Assembly (NCBI GenBank): GCA_021030905.1
Contig: JAGFMI010000009.1
Span: forward strand, 744,001 to 808,000
Source of the DNA: Pyrenula massariospora
Lineage: Eukaryota; Ascomycota; Eurotiomycetes; Pyrenulales; Pyrenulaceae
Direction: 5' to 3'
Length of the DNA: 64,000 nucleotides
Part shown: one piece after another, positions 4,732 through 52,949 of the stretch
Numbering within the stretch: position 1 is the first letter of the stretch
Layout of the letters: the number at the start of each line of letters is the position of its first letter
Notes under the pieces: generated by a model
Told to the model about the DNA's origin: nothing
Database searches by the model: none
The model's input: the letters and a program-made list of their open reading frames with translations, nothing else
Translations under genes and position numbers: made by a program

Positions 4732-6628
4732 TCATCCTGAACTCTCTAACTCCTCCCCATCCCCCTTCCCACCTTCAAACTCCAAAGCCACAATATCCGG
4801 TAGCTCGCGTATATCCATCGTCTCGCTCGTATCCAGATCCGCCACCCGGACCACCTCCAACCTCAGCGGGCCCGGCACCAGCGCGAGCAGCTTGAGCTCC
4901 GTGACGTGACAGCACCCGCTCGCCAACGGGCCCACCCTCACATCCGGGCTCACGCACACCAGGTCCGTGGCGCCGGCGCCGAGGCCCGCGCTGCGCTGCA
5001 TCGCGAGGAGGATGTTCTCGTCCGTCACGGCGGGGGCGATGTCTTCTTTTGGTTTGTTGCGGTGGGTCAGGCCCGAGTCCCGGACGGAGGAGGTTGTTGT
5101 TGTTGAGGCTTTGGGCGCGTGGCGGCGTGTCTCGGTGCGTTTGCGCTGGGGGATGGCGACGAGGGCGAGTTTTTGGGTCTTGGGGGAGCGGTTGACGACG
5201 AGGACTTGCCAGGTGAAGAGGGAGCCGACGCGGACGGTGGGGGGGCCGGAGAAGGTGAGGACGAGGCCGAATTCGGTGGTGGAGGAGGATGAGCGGGAGC
5301 GCTGCGGGTTTGGGATGGTGCTGGAGCTGTTGCGGACGGGGAGGCTGACTGGGCGGTTGGTGCGCTGCATTGCTTGGCTGGGTCCGCCGAAGGTGGGGTT
5401 CAAGGGCGTGGAGAAGTCGACGTGCGCGGTCCAGTTTAGATAGATTGTCGGGTGGCAGTCGTCTGAGACTAGTACTTTTGCAACGAGGGAGATGGAAATT
5501 AGGCCTGCGGTTGCTGTCGTGGAGGGCGAAGGGCTTTCGGCGCCGTTTGCTGGATGTAGGCGGTGGATGAAGGTAACGCTGTCTCTTGGCCGGCAAAGTA
5601 TAGGCAAGTCCAGGGAAGTCAGATCTTCGGTGCGACCATTCTCGAGCTCAAATCCAGCTTCGACCAATTCCACATTGTATTCGAGAAATGCAGTAATCTC
5701 AAAATCAAGACTTGCAATTGTAGCTGGCCGTTTTTGGTATGCGTTCATCCTCGAATATCTCACACGAGCATTAGCTGCAGGAATGAAGCGTGTCTTCCTT
5801 GCAGGTCTGTGGCGAATGCGAAGTGGACTCTTCTCGGAGTCTTGCTGGGGGAGTATGCGGGAGAGTCTTGGTGAAGACAGTAAGTTGGCTGTACCATTCT
5901 TGTCGCTAAATCCAAGCGGAGCTAGGAGATCTGTGGGGGGAGGTACAAAAGGTCGTAGATATTCGTCACCTAGAGGTAGATCTGATAAAGTCTTCGTAGC
6001 CGAGAGAGTGGCATAGGCTACGAATGAAATGGCTGGGTTGGGGAATCGCAGGCGTGGTCGATCTAGACGGGATGGTCAGCTTTCCTAGACGAGAATTCGA
6101 TCTTAGATGGAACTGACGAAGGACAGCTTCAGCTTTCCATACCGCAAGCAGAATTGGCGCACGTTCTGTTGCGTCATCTCCTTGTCCACCAAGTATCATA
6201 GGATTTTCCTTCTCCAGGACTGGTCCCGAAAATAGTAGATCTCGATTCGCTTCCCCATCCTCTCGAGGGCTTTGTGAGCCGTTGTCATTTGAGGCATACA
6301 CGTCAAGCCCAACATCCACTCGCGAGAGACGATGAGATAACCCTTCTCGGGATATATTAGGAACGCGCAAAACTATGAAGATCGCGACCTTTTCATCTGT
6401 AAATCTAGGAATGAGTAAGACAATGCGCCTACGACGTTATGTGCTGATCGTACCAAAGAAGACCAATGATCGTTGTTCAATCTCTTGCTGGGGGGACAAG
6501 TTGCCATTGTGTTTGCGCTCAAACGTGGGTCTCAGGACTTTTTCAACATCAATGGGAGAGCTGTTAGGTACGAAGGTGTCCAGGACCGCAGCTTTCAGGA
6601 AGTCTTCGTCATGAGAGATCTCTGACAT
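4732..6628 (-). CDS. TRS65: TRAPPII complex subunit Trs65
   Basis: Minus-strand exons 6454-6628, 6118-6396 and 4732-6062 give 594 residues. Trs65 is a fungal-specific subunit of the TRAPPII complex, which activates Ypt/Rab GTPases at the trans-Golgi. The best family match is the C-terminal block near the end: DLVCVSPDVRVGPLASG, then LLALVPGPLRLEVVRV and LPDIVALEF. The introns (6397-6453; 6063-6117, with a GCTGACC branch site) join FFDEKVAIF and VLHRPRLRFPNPAISFV smoothly. The open frame extends upstream to a GTG at 6637, but the first in-frame ATG is at 6628 and is taken as the start. The middle third is Ser/Arg/Pro-rich and probably disordered. It is divergent from PRP40, sharing about 310 bases. 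Confidence 0.85.
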
Positions 6629-44367: not shown

Positions 44368-45531
44368 ATGAATACTTTTCTTCTATTTATACTTCACACG
44401 GTTCCAGCCTCAGCATTCGCCCTCCCGGGCGGAAAAAGTCCATCATCCTGCAATGCCTGGCGTGGCGGCAGAAATCAAGTCTGGGACTTGAAGAAATTTA
44501 GCGTACACGTGGTATTTGGCGATAGCTACTCAGACGACAGTCGTTTCGCCTACTTTCTGGATCACAACGGCTCAGCACCGCCAATCGGGTGGGTCAACCC
44601 CCCAAATGATAACTCTCCCGATGGAGGCTTCCCGTGGCCGGACTACGTGCACTGGTATAGTGGGGCTCGGGTCTACAATTACGCCGTCAACGGCGCTGCT
44701 TGTTCGAATGACTACTCACCTCGATTCCTTGGCGCCATTAATGGGAATTATCCGGACGTGGAGCATTATGAGGTGCCCGCGTACATTGCCGATAGCCGAT
44801 ATGTCTTACCAGACGGATCCAAATTCCTAGTCACGCCTCCGGATGAGACGGTATACTCTATGTGGATCGGCACTAATGAACTGGACGTCGGCGGATTCCT
44901 CACGGACTCGCAGGTTCCAGGCACAAATATCACCACCTACATGGATTGCGTCTATGCACAGTTGCAACGCATCTACGAAAACGGCGGGCGCTACTTTGTC
45001 CTGCAGAATGTAAACCCTCTTTTCTTGACACCGCTTGTTGCGACGCCGGAGAATGGGGGCGTCGGACCAAATTTCTTATGGCCAACGAAGTCAGGCAATC
45101 TTACCGAGATCAGCTATAAGATGTTGGAGACGGTTGTGGGCGTTAACAACATTTATAAGTATCGCACGCCGTTTGAAGTCGTGATGGCTAGGAGATCCCC
45201 GGGTGCTAGATTTGCGCTCATGGACATGTATGGACTGGTGGGTCTAAATTGATTTCTTTCGGTCTTGTCGTTTCGTGCGCTGACTCCGCAGATTCTTGAC
45301 ATATACAACAACCCAACAGAATACTTGAATGGGACCGCACCGGCGAATGTTACAGGGTTCATCAACCACTGTACGATTGATGGCTCGGAATGTGTGCGAG
45401 AAGCGAGTCCGGATAGCTTCTTGTGGTTTGACGAGTCGCATCCAAGCCAGCAGACTGATCGAGTTATCGCAAGGACTTTTGTTGACGTCGTCAAGGGGAC
45501 GAGTAGGTGGGCTACATATTGGTCAGACTAG
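44368..45531 (+). CDS. Secreted CE16-type acetylesterase (SGNH family)
   Basis: Exons 44368-45237 and 45292-45531 give 369 residues. The signal peptide is MNTFLLFILHTVPASAFA. SGNH blocks follow in order: VVFGDSYSDDSRF (nucleophile Ser), WPDYVHWYSGARVYNYAVNGAACSN (Gly/Asn region), MWIGTNELDVGGF, and FLWFDESHPSQQTDR with the catalytic Asp and His. This arrangement is that of carbohydrate esterase family 16, which removes acetyl groups from short xylo- or gluco-oligosaccharides and acts together with xylanases. There are several N-glycosylation sequons (NGS, NIT, NLT, NGT, NVT). The 54-nt intron (GTGGGT donor, GCTGAC branch site) joins DMYGL to ILDIYNN. Likely role: plant cell-wall breakdown. 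Confidence 0.92.
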
Positions 45532-47094
45532 ACAGAAGTCTGGCGACGGAGGCTGTGCGCACCATGAGAAATTGTGTGTGGAGATGCCTCGGAAAAGTCT
45601 GCTCCTTTGCCTTCTCCAGCATTTCTCCGCCCTTGTATTGAGATCTAGATCTTGCTCTATGCAAGCCTTATCGCCGTCACAGGCCTTTTATCGCTTATCA
45701 TATTCTTTTGCTATTGAGGTCGTACACTACTTGAGGGGAGACAATTAATCTGCGGCAACGCGACGAGGTTGGGTTATCCAAATTTGTGTCAGAACCCATT
45801 ATTTCGCCGAGCGGCCGCCAGTGCTGATAATCAGAGGCGCTACCATTTTGGTACCTAGCCTGGGGACGATAGATGACTCTCGTGCCTCTCAAAAGCCCGA
45901 TTGACCCGCGTATGCTGAGAGTGAGGCAGTGACAATTGTGTATCTGCCTGATGTCGTCGCACTGAGACGATTGGGACTCTTTTGGACCTATCGCTCCAGA
46001 TATTGGCCCAAGTCTGGTCTTCATGAAGCATTTTCATTAACAGGAACATACAGGGTTAGCATTTCGATTTGGAAGTATGTGAATTGAACAACGCTTCGTT
46101 CTACCTTGCAACAAGTTTGACCTGTTATTGTCGGTGTTCTCCTGGCCTTCAAGCCAGTAGTTCGCTCTGCCAAAGCCACAACAGGATAACTCATCAAAAA
46201 TATGAAAGTCTAGCTAGCCCTTTGGGCCATATTTCCAGGAATCACATTTAACGAATGAATCTGAGCAGTTCAAATACAGACCACTATCGGAAAGTAATTG
46301 CATTCAGCTTCTCGAGACTTGTCTCGGCGAAAGCAATGAGCCAATTTCCTGTTTCTTTGTTGCGACCTGCTTGGACAACGCATCGCTTGAATACCATGCT
46401 CTATAGTACGTGTGGGGCGAGGCTAAAGCCAAAAGCGTAGGATTCCCTGTAGTAGTAAAACTCTTGATATTGGTTTGAAGCCGTCGTCTTTCCTAGAAAG
46501 TCTACGAGACAAACATTTAAGAAGTTTCGGCTATACTATTGAGGACCTCGAAGGAGCAGGGTCATCTATCCAACATACAACAGGGCCGAGCGCCTCCTGG
46601 CAGAACAGGACAGCTGATTTGGCCTCTAGGCCTTGGAAATGGCTATCATATTTGTTTTGGCGGGCTGCTGTTTGCCCCTATTCTCATCCAACCGCAGTGA
46701 TACACTTCAGAATTATGAGGTTTCCAATTCACTTTTTTTGAGGAGCTTGATTTTAAAGATTTTGTTCGTTTAATATGGCAAGCTAGTACAACCCTACGCG
46801 CTTTATCTTACGAGAACAAGCTTCCAAACACACTTGTGCTAACTTGGAAATTAGACCTGCTATGTTAATTTGAATTCGCCCTATGATGATAAAGACCGGA
46901 ATTTTATACTAAAGAAAGAAATTACCGGCCGGGGAGGTGGACAGCTGTAGACCCCACTTGTCACGGGACCACCTGTCAACCGCCTACACGGTTTGACGCC
47001 AGATAAAACTTCCTAGACTCTACACGCCACCACTCTCACATCTCTCCTCATCCATCGTCTCACGCTCCATGCGTCTCTCTTAAGTAGCCCATCG
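45532..47094. other. 1.6 kb gap between esterase and knottin-like gene
   Basis: No gene supported. A/T-rich from about 46700 to 46930. No repeat or RNA gene recognised. Confidence 0.4.
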
Positions 47095-47481
47095 CTACTT
47101 TTTGAAGCAGATGAACTTGTTACCGGACCCCTGGCATGTGAACCCCTTGCAGCAATTCCCCACCGGGCTGGGGCCGGGAACGCACGTTTGTCCATTCGTG
47201 CTGCAGCGTTTCTGGGACGGTCGTTTGGTTAGCTCTACATCCTATCAAGATTTTCGTTGGGATATGGATGAGATGACACAGAAAGTCGAAGCTGGGGAGC
47301 AGTATCAAGAAACATGATTGAAGAGGAACGGGGGTCTTGAAAGAAATGGATTGTCTACTTCGAGCTTGAGCGGCTTAGCCATAGCTTCGGGCTCGGCGTC
47401 GGGGCCTGGAACTGGGTTGGCAAGAGCGGTGCCCGCGACGGAGAAGGCGCTGAGGAGGGTGATGAGGGTCGAGAAGTACAT
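47095..47481 (-). CDS. Secreted cystine-knot (knottin-like) mini-protein precursor
   Basis: Not visible as a single open frame. Minus-strand exons 47359-47481 and 47095-47211 give 79 residues. Exon 1 encodes a signal peptide (MYFSTLITLLSAFSVAGTALA) and an acidic propeptide (NPVPGPDAEPEAMAKPLKLE). Exon 2 begins with the Kex2 site KR and then the mature 36-residue peptide. Its six Cys have spacing C-x6-C-x9-C-C-x4-C-x8-C, the pattern of the inhibitor cystine-knot fold (starts CSTNGQTC, contains NCCKGFTC). The intron (47212-47358, 147 nt) has a GTAGAC donor, a GAGCTAACC branch site and a CCCAG acceptor; the total is in frame. Comparable peptides in plants, animals and fungi are antimicrobial, protease-inhibiting or channel-acting; which applies here is unknown. 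The length, Cys spacing and processing site together make a chance reading unlikely. Confidence 0.82.
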
Positions 47482-49389
47482 GTTGGCTGAGTGGTGTTGA
47501 GTATTGTTGACTTGATTTAATGAAAGGACTTGGTGCCTGGTTGCAAGACTAGAACAAAATTTCTGGGGGTTAAGTTGTCAGATATCGAAGGAGAAAAAGA
47601 TTATAATGATGGACGACGCCCTTCTTATATGTCGCGGAGGACTGTCGCTACCGCCTGCGGTTACGTGTCCGTTCAACGGTTTTTTTTGGAAAACAAATGA
47701 GGACTTTGATGTAGATGAATTCAATTGGTCCGATGTCTCGCTAGAATACGAGCTGTAGAAGAGTTTCACAACGATTTTCACACATTCTCTGCTTCAACAG
47801 TGTAACGGCGGCACGGGCTTTAAGTTTGAAGATTGTGCATACATTGAGCATTCTGAGTCTCATGCTGAAAATGTGGAGCAGAGCAGATTACCTACCTTGA
47901 AACCATGCTTACCCATAGATCTAGGCGTTTAATTGTACATCCATCCCAAATCTATTCAGGCAGTAATGGGGGCGACCCCTTAAGTAGGGGATAAGGGGGG
48001 AATGAGATCCTTCATCATGATCTATACTGACACTGCCCTCGATACCACTGTCTCCGGCTCTTCTAATTATTCCGTGCAAATGGTAGTGAGGATAAGTATC
48101 TCATAACCATGCGGTACTACAACGAGGTAGCACGGGTTAGTGTAGTATAGTTTCAAGCACTGTGATGAAACCTTTACCTAATGCCTCTGGACAAGTTGTA
48201 CGATTGCAACTGGTCATGACGCGGTACGTAGGAGAAAGCATGAGGGAGTAGCACGCGGCGCTCATTAAGCTTATTGAAGGCTCGGAGAAGAGCCCGAAGT
48301 CGGGCTTTATCGGGGACCTGACGTCGTCCGATATACCTTGTATGTACTTGACAGTTGTATACTTTGGCCAAGACTAAGTTATCAAAAGCTTACCTGCACG
48401 TGCCACAGCGATAGCGACCGATTGCAGAACCGTCCAATTCTGTTGACAAACATAGAAGTAAGAAAGACGCGCGGTTGGACAGACGTAGGGGCAGGCAAGT
48501 CACCGAGAGAAAATGTGTCAGTACGCCTTGCGACACGCACTGATTCGACGAGAGTCTGAGAAGGTGACACAGCATCACGTCATTTAGACTTCGGAGCTTA
48601 AGGCAATGCCGCTCTGATGACCGAAGTAGCATCAAGAGAGCCTCTTATTCCCTGCGGCTATGCACCCAGATGAATCGAGCGGGAGATGTAGAGGGTCGCT
48701 AAAGCAATAGCAGCAACGAGGTATGTCTACTATAGGGATACGAGGAAGACCTGGAGAAGTTTTCACCTGCAGGTAATTAAAGGTACCTTCGACTTTGACT
48801 AAATAGGTACATTCGCTAAAAGAGAGCTGCTACGTTCAGTTTGTCGTGTAATATTGCATCAACGGTCTGTAGAAATCTACGTCGTATGGCACCCCCGGAA
48901 TCGCTGGCGAAATAATAACGGTATTAAAGCTTTTATAGCTTGCGCTGCAAGATTAGCCGACAGGCATCATGGCGTGGTGCTTGATGACATCTCTCCGAAA
49001 TCTAGAACCGGGACAACACTCAGAACAATATTAATCTTGGGGATGATAAAAAGAGCAGCTATTGGGGCAGGACTAGCGAGTAGTATATTATGTACTCTTG
49101 AATGTACCGTCTGAACGCCGAGTTGCGCCTACCGGATTCACCGCTATGACCGAATAGGTACCAAATATTGCAATCTGTCTTGTATGGCCAAGCTTAAATC
49201 TACCTTCGCCACTATCCCACTTCATTATGTCCTATTACCTAGCCTATCTTTTGTCCCTCAAGGAAAGCTCTCGATCTGTCAAAGATTTTGATTATTACCG
49301 TGGCTCGCATATAAACCTAATCAGATGCATTAGCATTCTCGAGCGGACTTCATCGCTTGACAGGACTTCGAGTACGATACCATGAGTAC
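47482..49389. other. 1.9 kb gap without a supported gene
   Basis: The left end holds the promoter of the knottin-like gene. Elsewhere only short open frames on both strands (for example 48174-48371, -) without family features. Confidence 0.4.
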
Positions 49390-50304
49390 TTAACTATGGC
49401 TCTCCTCAGCCTCACTGGCGGAAATCGCATTGTCGTCAGTTCGCTTATAGAAAGAGCCCCTGTGAGGACCAGCCGCATGATAGAAGGCGTATGGTTTTGC
49501 ATTCTTGTCCAGTTGGTAAGCGTAATCTTCAATCGCAACGTTCTTGGTGCCGAACAAGTTCTCCTGTCGGCGCTTAGTACAGACCGTAGTATCTGGGGGA
49601 TTACTATTAAAGAGTGCCCGGCAAAATGTGCCATAAACCCCAGCAGTTGAGAACGTTATAGTGAACCAATCACCATAATTCACACGACTTTGCCTATAAC
49701 CATTGGCTATTTGAGTACCCTGCTCTTTTCGAAACGTTAGTGGTCTCTCTTTACAAGGATCTGAATAGGTCGTGAACATACGATTTTGTTCTGTAACTGT
49801 TGCGGGAAATACATAAGCGCCTGCGCCACCTTGCTCCGTACTCTGCCAAGGAAACTCTTCTGCGCTCGTCGTGTCCCTATTGATTCGATCAGTGTGGCGG
49901 CTTGACAGTTGGTTTGTGAAGAAAGGGTTCGTGCTTGCTCCCGAGTCTCGATAATTGTCTCTCCTGGCGCTCGATGTCTGCAGCCTTTGACTAGAGATTC
50001 TCTCTTTAGTGCTTGAATCATAGTTTCAAATTACACCGAACTGCACTCACTAGGTTCTATCGCCGCCACGCAGGCAGAGCATCGCGTAACAGTTTTGCTC
50101 AGCTATGTTTGGCCATGTAGAAATATCGAAAACAGCATGGATGGGGTTGGATCGGGTTTCACCAACTCGTTTCACTAGGTCTCTCGTGTTGCTAAGATGG
50201 ACATCGTGTCTATCAGCTGGCTCGGAGGCCGGAACTGCCGAAATGACAGAGTACATAAGGGGAGCCAAATAGAGCATAGCAAAAAGAGACCGGATAATAG
50301 CCAT
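49390..50304 (-). CDS. Secreted NucA/NucB-type deoxyribonuclease-like protein
   Basis: Minus-strand exons 50051-50304 and 49390-49990 give 284 residues. A signal peptide starts MAIIRSLFAMLYLAPLMYS. A KR site (DLVKR) follows at about residue 46, then HAVFDISTWPNIAEQNC. The core block TTSAEEFPWQSTEQGGAG matches the NucA/NucB signature CDEYPFAS...GG, with the acidic pair kept as Glu-Glu but the family Cys replaced. After it come YVFPATVTEQN and WFTITFSTAGVYGTFCRALF. The family comprises secreted DNA-degrading enzymes (NucB of Bacillus digests extracellular DNA and biofilms). The intron is best drawn as 49991-50050 (60 nt, with CACTAA branch site); a 39-nt version ending at 50012 also keeps the frame. 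Whether it is catalytically active is not shown. Two tandem-repeat tracts lie upstream. Confidence 0.72.
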
Positions 50305-50923: not shown

Positions 50924-51616
50924 TTGCGGTTGATCGATGGTGGCCCGTCGTGCAACGTGTTGCACCAGCAGTTGCGCAGGCGTTTTTTGAAAATTTGCTC
51001 CCAGAAATGTAAGAGAACCAAGAGACTCCTGCAAGTCACACAAAGAACCGAGAAAAGATGCTCAATAATGCGTTGAAATCAACAATATCGATTAAAAAGT
51101 GTTCACCTGGAAAGTTATTAGATTGTACGCAAGGTACCTTTCTTATCTGTGAACGATTTTAGCCCTGCGGCCAAGCTTTCACTCTGCCTTCTACTACATG
51201 CTTCAAGGCGTTTTCAGCCTGGAAAGGCGGCTGTGAGGCGACCAATGTTTCAGGAAGGGAGTCTAGCAAGATTGGTTTAGTAATCTTGAATATGAGCAAC
51301 TAAGTGCCCTCCCAAATGAGGAAAGCAAGCTCGAGACAGTTGCCCCAAAGAACAACTGACTGTGGCGGAACTAAGATGTTGTTTCTTTTTGAGGACAGTA
51401 GCCAGTGACAAGAAGGTAAAGGCAAGACGAGAGTGCTAGGCTCGACTGATGGCAAGTCCAAAGTATAAAGGAACAGAGACGACCGTGTCAGAGAGAAGAT
51501 GTAGACTCAGAGCCAAAAGATATCGACACATTTTTCAATACCCAATTCAAGAAAGACATATCAATCACCAACGCTTCCTACACACGAGTAATCGAGTAAA
51601 AGTCCTCGTCCTCATA

Positions 51617-52237
51617 ATGCAGTCCAAATTGATCGCCGTCGTTTTCACCTGCGCCTCCAGCCTGATGGCTTCCCCATTTGGCACGGCCCCAACCGCCTCC
51701 AGCGTGGTGGCCCCTCCACTCGGTACGGCCCCCACGGGCACCACTAACTCAAACTGGTTGATTGAACTGGACCGCGAGCGAGCCCAAGGCTTAGAGGGAG
51801 ATCTCATCTACCTGGGCCACTCGACGGGAATCGCGTCAGCGACAGCTGGTACGGCGAGTACCGCCACTGTAGCTCGCAAAATCCAAAAGCGCACTACTTT
51901 TTGCCCGAAAAGCGAGACTCAATGCTCTACAAACCATTCTGCACGCAATGCTAACTGCGACGCGCTTGTCACTGAACTTGGCGGCGACTCAACGACTAAG
52001 GTGGTCGCTAATACGCGCCAGATCTGTTACAAGGGCGATTCATCTAAGAACGAGAAATGCTGCGTCTCGGTGGGTAGCGTGGTTTCTAATTTGGTCAAGG
52101 GGGACGTGGTGGATGCTGCCAATACACTGCTGCAGACATGCACTGAGAATGGAATTTCGGGCAAGATGACCAACGTTCTGATGGAAGGGGTCTGTGAGAG
52201 CGTGTGCCTGTCGAATCATGAAGCCTATTGCTTCTAA
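51617..52237 (+). CDS. Secreted Cys-rich protein (WD-like fungal type)
   Basis: 206 residues from ATG 51617, which begins a signal peptide (MQSKLIAVVFTCASSLMA). The frame is open 56 codons further upstream, but that part lacks any secretory or family feature. A low-complexity Pro/Thr/Ala/Gly segment with a repeated GTAPT motif follows, then a KR site (IQKR). The Cys-rich module runs from TTFCPKSETQC to the end and contains NCDALVTELGG, QICYKGDSSKNEKCCVSVG and VCESVCLSNHEAYC. About ten Cys in the last 110 residues suggest a disulfide-bonded secreted domain. The module resembles a fungal secreted family called WD-like in databases; I offer that name tentatively. It may act as an effector or cell-surface protein. 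Function unknown. Confidence 0.75.
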   Translation: MQSKLIAVVFTCASSLMASPFGTAPTASSVVAPPLGTAPTGTTNSNWLIELDRERAQGLEGDLIYLGHSTGIASATAGTASTATVARKIQKRTTFCPKSETQCSTNHSARNANCDALVTELGGDSTTKVVANTRQICYKGDSSKNEKCCVSVGSVVSNLVKGDVVDAANTLLQTCTENGISGKMTNVLMEGVCESVCLSNHEAYCF

Positions 52238-52949
52238 GCAGGCACAGAGGAGCTGCTGTTGGTCTGACAGGGTGATTATGGTTATGGAAGGAAACAGAGC
52301 GAGCGGAGGATATCTTACACACGGCGTAATGGTAACAATTGGGCTGGTCCCTGCAGCGTGGAAATGTGTTTCGTAGCTGTGCTTTTGTCCTTGGATACTA
52401 GTCGTACAGTCTGAAACAGGAAAATGATCGTGAGAACCCAGTCGTACATCGGTCAGGAATCGTGTTCTGTTGGTCTGGGAAAAGAAACTGTTGCATTTCA
52501 TGATTCCAAGTGCTTGAGTCTGCATCCTAAGCCTTATCCATTATCCTGTTAACAACGTCGACGGTTTTTTGATTAGTCTGCCTCGGCCCGTGCCATTCCA
52601 AATACTATCCGTGCCAACCCGGCCCAGGAATGCACGGACAGAGGTAGACCAATCAAAAACCCTCTGACACCATTAACAGGATAAGGAATACAAGGCTGTC
52701 GGATTTGGATGCGGCGTCGCTTGGGGTCGAAGTGATCCTTACAAGCGCGTTTCTCGATCGCCCAGCCTCATTTACAACTTGTCCCACCCTTACTTGCGTC
52801 AAGGACATGAGACTCCATAAGATTACAAAGTGCTGCATACCCGTCTACACTTGTGGGAGAAACATCATGAGAGAGGAATAAACGACCAGCTTTCCCTTGT
52901 GCAGTTACATCGCATTTCGAAGAAACCTAGAACCATTTCACCTTTGATC
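52238..52949. other. Gap containing a foldback element
   Basis: No protein gene supported. The main content is the inverted-repeat element at 52539-52686; the rest is the 3' end of the preceding gene and the promoter of the next. Confidence 0.45.
52539..52686. mobile_element. 148-bp foldback (MITE-like) inverted-repeat element
   Basis: The left arm (from CATTATCCTGTTAA, 52539, to GTGCCATTCC, 52599) and the right arm (from GGAATGCAC to TTAACAGGATAAGG, 52686) are inverted copies about 60 bases long. They are about 75-80% alike, with most differences being C/T or G/A. The loop is about 28 bases. No coding capacity. This looks like a small non-autonomous DNA element or an old inverted duplication; I could not define a target-site duplication. 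Confidence 0.6.

What the first reader, a model, noticed from the sequence alone, without database searches (positions are those of the whole stretch)
47095..47481. Hidden knottin-like secreted peptide with exon split at the processing site
Seen: a two-exon minus-strand gene with signal peptide, acidic propeptide, KR cleavage site and a 36-residue mature part with six Cys spaced C-x6-C-x9-CC-x4-C-x8-C. The intron falls exactly before KR, so one exon is prepro and the other is the mature peptide. Known: this spacing fits the inhibitor cystine-knot class found in plant and animal defence peptides. Inferred: a fungal secreted peptide with antimicrobial, inhibitory or effector role. The 147-nt intron and 79-residue size make it easy for gene callers to miss.
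Basis: partly seen in the sequence, partly recalled or inferred. Interest (0 to 1): 0.78.

Follow-up and report, generated by a model that had tools for sequence, protein, structure and literature searches.

The report
Small fungal knot-peptide gene family
A fungus carries what looks like a real gene for a tiny secreted, knot-shaped peptide, one of three scattered sister genes whose leader parts stay alike while the peptide loops differ widely, a pattern resembling that of cone-snail toxin genes.

Summary
A two-exon minus-strand gene (47481-47095; 147-nt phase-0 intron 47358-47212) encodes signal peptide, pro-region, KR and a 36-residue, six-Cys mature peptide. Two unlinked copies in the same 37.8 Mb genome keep the exon split, intron length (144, 145 nt), branch-point motif and all six Cys, which supports splicing and frame without RNA data. 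KR is kept in one copy; the other reads KC. The mature peptide alone is predicted to fold like an inhibitor cystine knot (pLDDT 88); sequence and fold matches are individually weak but mostly knottins. No Pfam family passes its cut-off. No homologue was found among 5.8 billion proteins, where close relatives are sparse. Mature loops differ more than the intron; a 78-nt non-coding stretch after the stop codon is the best-kept part. Positive selection is not shown. Best reading: a Kex2-processed fungal knottin acting on another organism; target unknown. Such scaffolds are known in fungi (Avr9, a rust AvrP4 homologue, Histoplasma, Beauveria), so this is a new member of a known kind.

The parts
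47359..47481 (-). exon 1: start codon, signal peptide and pro-region (41 codons)
   Evidence: copies
47419..47481 (-). signal peptide, 21 residues, hydrophobic core, A-L-A before the likely cleavage point
   Evidence: hydropathy; the cleavage point is inference, no signal-peptide predictor was run
47359..47418 (-). pro-region of 20 residues, beginning with eight successive X-Pro/X-Ala dipeptides
   Evidence: Pro/Ala at 8 even and 0 odd positions, given cleavage after A-L-A
47212..47358 (-). 147-nt phase-0 intron, GTAGAC...CTAAC...CAG
   Evidence: copies have 144 and 145 nt
47095..47211 (-). exon 2: KR site, mature peptide, stop codon
47206..47211 (-). KR dibasic site, Kex2-type
   Evidence: sequence; KR in copy P3, KC in copy P2
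47098..47205 (-). mature 36-residue six-Cys peptide, four Lys, no Asp/Glu
47621..47630 (-). TATA-like ATATAAGAAG, present in all three copies
   Evidence: alignment
46920..46997 (-). best-kept stretch of the duplicated unit, non-coding, 98-175 nt after the stop codon
   Evidence: its limits were chosen after seeing the conservation profile

Best explanation
The locus is a functional gene for a secreted inhibitor-cystine-knot peptide. Shown by sequence and copies: two exons, a phase-0 intron just before the dibasic site, a conserved Cys frame. Predicted: a knottin fold. Inferred: signal peptidase removes residues 1-21, a Kex2-type protease cuts after KR, a dipeptidyl aminopeptidase could trim the X-Pro/X-Ala run, and three disulfides form in the secretory pathway. 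The variable loops then bind a target outside the cell. Because the loops differ more than the intron while the leader stays alike, I think the target most likely belongs to another organism (microbial competitor, or a symbiotic or host partner), so the peptide is of toxin or effector type. Within that I put an antimicrobial or competitor role slightly ahead of a partner effector.
Against: No expression, mass or activity data. Foldseek has 38 matches at E<=10 and none at E<=0.001; its first row is a Dickkopf domain, not a toxin, and IGF-binding-protein domains are listed too; VIA Z stays below 5. The single-sequence PDB search has two unrelated bacterial lipoproteins first. Nei-Gojobori dN/dS is below 1 in every pair (0.27-0.52) and synonymous sites of exon 2 are near saturation, so positive selection is not demonstrated; the loops (0.22 invariant) are as diverged as the far downstream flank (30 of 151). 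Copy P2 has lost KR and carries a seventh Cys. The fungus and its way of life are not named.
Confidence: 0.6

Rival explanations
1. The peptide acts on the fungus itself, as a secreted signal or development factor, and the variable loops only reflect weak constraint.
For: Few copies known (3); a TATA-like box and a 3' stretch are kept in all, so regulation seems more constrained than the product. dN/dS under 1.
Against: Weak constraint alone would not make loops differ more than the intron while 16 of 18 Cys-codon positions stay fixed.
Confidence: 0.15
2. Protease inhibitor on the knottin scaffold, protecting the fungus or its partner from secreted proteases.
For: Knottins include protease inhibitors (PMC4503680, passage).
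Against: None of the 11 PDB profile matches is a protease inhibitor by name; this is weak, as those matches are weak.
Confidence: 0.15
3. One or more copies are decaying: P2 has KC for KR and a seventh Cys, so part of the family may no longer give a free mature peptide.
For: P2 sequence.
Against: P2 keeps frame, splice sites, branch point and the six Cys; this concerns P2, not the window gene.
Confidence: 0.3
4. Chance open frame and no gene.
For: No homologue found in two protein searches.
Against: Chance rate; two copies with the same structure.
Confidence: 0.02

Closest known systems
Fungal knottins of the KNOTTIN 'Fungi1' group (Histoplasma and other Onygenales; Avr9 of Cladosporium fulvum stands in the same tree)
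   Same: small secreted fungal proteins with a C-terminal six-Cys knot, in expanded sets (PMC4503680, passages); Onygenales belong, as I recall, to the same class as this fungus
   Different: their alignment was not available here, so sequence kinship is untested
MLP124266 / AvrP4 family of rust fungi (solved cystine knot)
   Same: secreted, six Cys in the C-terminal part, spacing within the same published consensus (PMC6889267, passages)
   Different: mature protein of 69 residues with a flexible N-terminal half and eight Cys; here 36 residues, knot only
Spider-toxin-like knottins of Beauveria bassiana
   Same: fungal, predicted to resemble spider toxins (PMC12099005, passages)
   Different: sequences not compared here; no gene structure seen in the passages
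Conotoxin genes
   Same: conserved signal exon, fast-changing mature exon, intron near the pro/mature border in several superfamilies (PMC3862624, passages)
   Different: introns over 3 kb and mostly three exons there; below the Pfam cut-off here; no common descent implied

Membership tests
Inhibitor cystine knot (knottin) scaffold | six Cys within C-x2-7-C-x3-10-C-x0-7-C-x1-17-C-x4-19-C | tested here: met
   P1 6,9,0,4,8; P2 and P3 6,8,0,4,9; consensus from a passage of PMC6889267
Inhibitor cystine knot (knottin) scaffold | compact fold with C-terminal beta hairpin, like solved knottins | tested here: met
Inhibitor cystine knot (knottin) scaffold | disulfides I-IV, II-V, III-VI (recalled definition) | not testable with these tools
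   model coordinates are not given; needs chemistry or NMR
Pfam PF02950 Conotoxin | score over the curated cut-off | tested here: not met
   20.8 bits against 25.1 for the P1 precursor; no match for the P1 mature part alone
Pfam PF07740 Toxin_12 / PF05980 Toxin_7 | score over the curated cut-off | tested here: not met
   P2 mature part only: 17 of 21 and 17.3 of 27 bits
Pfam PF11410 Antifungal_pept | score over the curated cut-off | tested here: not met
   not among the matches of the three proteins; the genome search gave five matches below the cut-off, none at the three genes
KNOTTIN Fungi1 / Avr9 family | match to the curated Fungi1 profile | not tested
   alignment not held here

The most novel reading that the evidence does not exclude
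A fungus has independently arrived at the cone-snail way of making toxins: a conserved leader exon, an intron at the processing site, and a knottin exon free to change, in dispersed copies that share a family-specific 3' element, giving a small diversifying peptide arsenal.
Probability: 0.25. Interest if true: 0.62.

Novelty: new member of a known kind. Interest (0 to 1): 0.4.

Why it matters
It shows that a two-exon fungal knottin can be found and checked from one genome through its copies. Knottins are known in the wider class (Histoplasma and other Onygenales, PMC4503680); for Pyrenula, the nearest named relative, none of the papers listed in my two searches spoke of them (10 of 127 listed, 8 of 12,855), which is a thin check. 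If the exon-wise rate difference holds in relatives, it makes a clean test of whether fungal knottins diversify as animal venom peptides do, and the shared 3' stretch gives a handle on how such a family is regulated.

Tried and rejected
Homologues: single-sequence and three-sequence searches of 5.8 billion proteins gave none (1 and 39 candidates, none scored). This is weak evidence for an orphan family: the control with the window's Nup160-like protein found 21 proteins among 7992 scored, one unnamed at 77% over 66% of the query, the best named one a Pyrenula MAG at 46%.

More members in the genome: protein, pattern and Pfam searches gave none beyond the three. This is also weak: the mature parts of P3 and P1, used as queries, found only themselves, so a diverged member would be missed; the leader query found all three. 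The pattern had 3 matches, as many as its control (3); two are P1 and P3, the third (C9) has an in-frame TAA and is rejected; P2 is not matched because of KC. The sub-cut-off Pfam loci and the C9 locus hold no six-Cys CC frame (8 loci).

3' stretch: no Rfam match, no folding excess (z -0.78, -0.25, +1.38); an alignment fold has 53 pairs, 6 with changes on both sides, and a covariation term of +0.24, which I do not count as support. P1 and P3 share a stop-free forward frame over it (and one on the other strand), but P2 breaks it with three separate one-base gaps, and P1-P3 mismatches are even over the three positions (6, 5, 6), so a coding exon is unlikely.

Shared neighbours: in 15 kb of window against 9.9 kb around each copy, only the gene unit (under 1 kb) and an unrelated repeat match. 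The NCBIfam match (TIGR04252, 15.7 of 35 bits) is taken as chance. The Conotoxin match of the precursor vanished with the mature part alone. Paper searches gave nothing on intron position or dipeptide pro-regions of fungal knottins in the listings; I read no paper whole, and none beyond passages of PMC4503680, PMC12099005, PMC9632046, PMC12204505, PMC6889267 and PMC3862624.

Full report
The gene. On the minus strand, exon 1 (47481-47359) encodes 41 residues, an intron of 147 nt follows (47358-47212), and exon 2 (47211-47095) encodes KR, 36 residues and a stop. The intron is phase 0 and ends just before KR, so the leader and the mature peptide sit on separate exons. The donor GTAGAC looks weak; a CTAAC motif starts 20 nt before the acceptor. 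Of 10 GT/AG combinations that keep the Cys frame, three use this acceptor, and only this donor begins with GTA. In 60 simulated windows a six-Cys CC frame of this kind appeared once, never with a dibasic site.

Copies. The genome (37.8 Mb, 33 contigs; the window is C33:744001-808000) holds two further copies on other contigs: P2 on C2 (start codon 877804, plus strand) and P3 on C27 (531793 down to 531442 plus stop, minus strand). Both have exon 1 ending in LE, an intron of 144 or 145 nt, a CTAAC or CTGAC motif before the acceptor, and exon 2 starting with K. The six Cys are kept in 2 of 2; loop lengths are 6,9,0,4,8 in P1 and 6,8,0,4,9 in both copies. KR is kept in P3; P2 has KC, so it has seven Cys and no plain dibasic site. 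I take the shared structure as the main evidence that the gene is real. No RNA was available.

Evolution. Over ungapped columns of one three-way nucleotide alignment, invariant columns are 59 of 99 in exon 1, 63 of 140 in the intron, 19 of 87 in the mature loops, 16 of 18 at Cys codons, 57 of 78 in the 3' stretch, 49 of 96 between stop codon and that stretch, 110 of 289 far upstream and 30 of 151 far downstream. Loops differ more than the intron in each pair (p=0.021, 0.042, 0.0009); the pairs are not independent, and the loops are no better kept than the far downstream flank. In the codon alignment 15 of 81 loop nucleotides are invariant against 6.0 when codons are shuffled (3 of 2000 shuffles reach it), so the exon looks homologous and diverged, not swapped. 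Third positions are also diverged in exon 2 (3 of 27 invariant) and dN/dS is below 1 in the three pairs, so I claim fast change, not proven positive selection. In conotoxins both Dn and Ds were reported higher in the later exon (2- to 8-fold in four subfamilies, as I read it of the A superfamily; PMC3862624, passages), which is a similar picture.

Pro-region. Given cleavage after A-L-A, the pro-region begins with eight X-Pro/X-Ala dipeptides in P1 (8 even, 0 odd; p=0.0004) and much the same in P2 (8 and 1; p=0.004), but only two in P3 (p=0.23). P1 and P2 are related, so this is one observation. Trimming by a dipeptidyl aminopeptidase is my inference from recalled knowledge of such pro-regions.

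3' stretch. 46997-46920, starting 98 nt after the stop codon, is the best-kept part of the unit (31 of 40 columns at its peak, against 28 in exon 1 and 10-17 in exon 2). Its limits were chosen after seeing that profile. A core pattern taken from the three copies, with up to 2 mismatches allowed, occurs 3 times in the genome, once after each copy, against 0 for the reversed control; that the three are found is by construction, that no other is found is the result. A DNA search with 111 nt found P1 and P3 but not P2. P1 and P3 share an open frame there, but P2 breaks it and mismatches are even over the three positions, so I read it as non-coding. It has no Rfam match and no folding excess. A linear regulatory or 3'-end element is the simplest reading.

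Organism. The Nup160-like protein of the window is nearest to an unnamed protein (77% over 66%) and then to a Pyrenula MAG (46%); the other matches with an organism name, Paecilomyces, Cladophialophora, Knufia and Aspergillus, are at 32-35%. Pyrenula belongs to Eurotiomycetes; that the others do is recalled. A lichen-type lifestyle is possible but not shown.

Mechanism and verdict. I read it as a secreted, Kex2-processed knottin whose variable loops bind an extracellular target, most likely of another organism. Fungal knottins are already described (passages), so the find is a new member of a known kind, made more interesting by the exon-wise rates and the 3' stretch.

Noticed in passing
46920-46997: Non-coding stretch after the stop codon, kept better between the three copies than any exon; its core pattern occurs only after these three genes.
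   Followed up: partly
52535-52664: Dispersed repeat that matches L026 6503-6634 in one orientation and, in part, 6489-6543 in the other: palindrome-like, apparently unrelated to the knottin gene.
   Followed up: no
51449-52237: Secreted-looking Cys-rich protein with the Pfam domain WD-like_fungi (PF20493); its Cys-rich part starts soon after a KR.
   Followed up: no
50050-50304: Small minus-strand ORF with a signal-like N-terminus and a KR, perhaps the first exon of another small secreted protein (49390-49779 could belong to it); no Pfam match for either.
   Followed up: no
44368-45531: GDSL lipase gene (PF00657 on 44368-45249); the frame ends at 45252 and another open frame follows to 45531, so probably an intron lies there.
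   Followed up: no
31566-33821: HET domain fused to ankyrin repeats.
   Followed up: no
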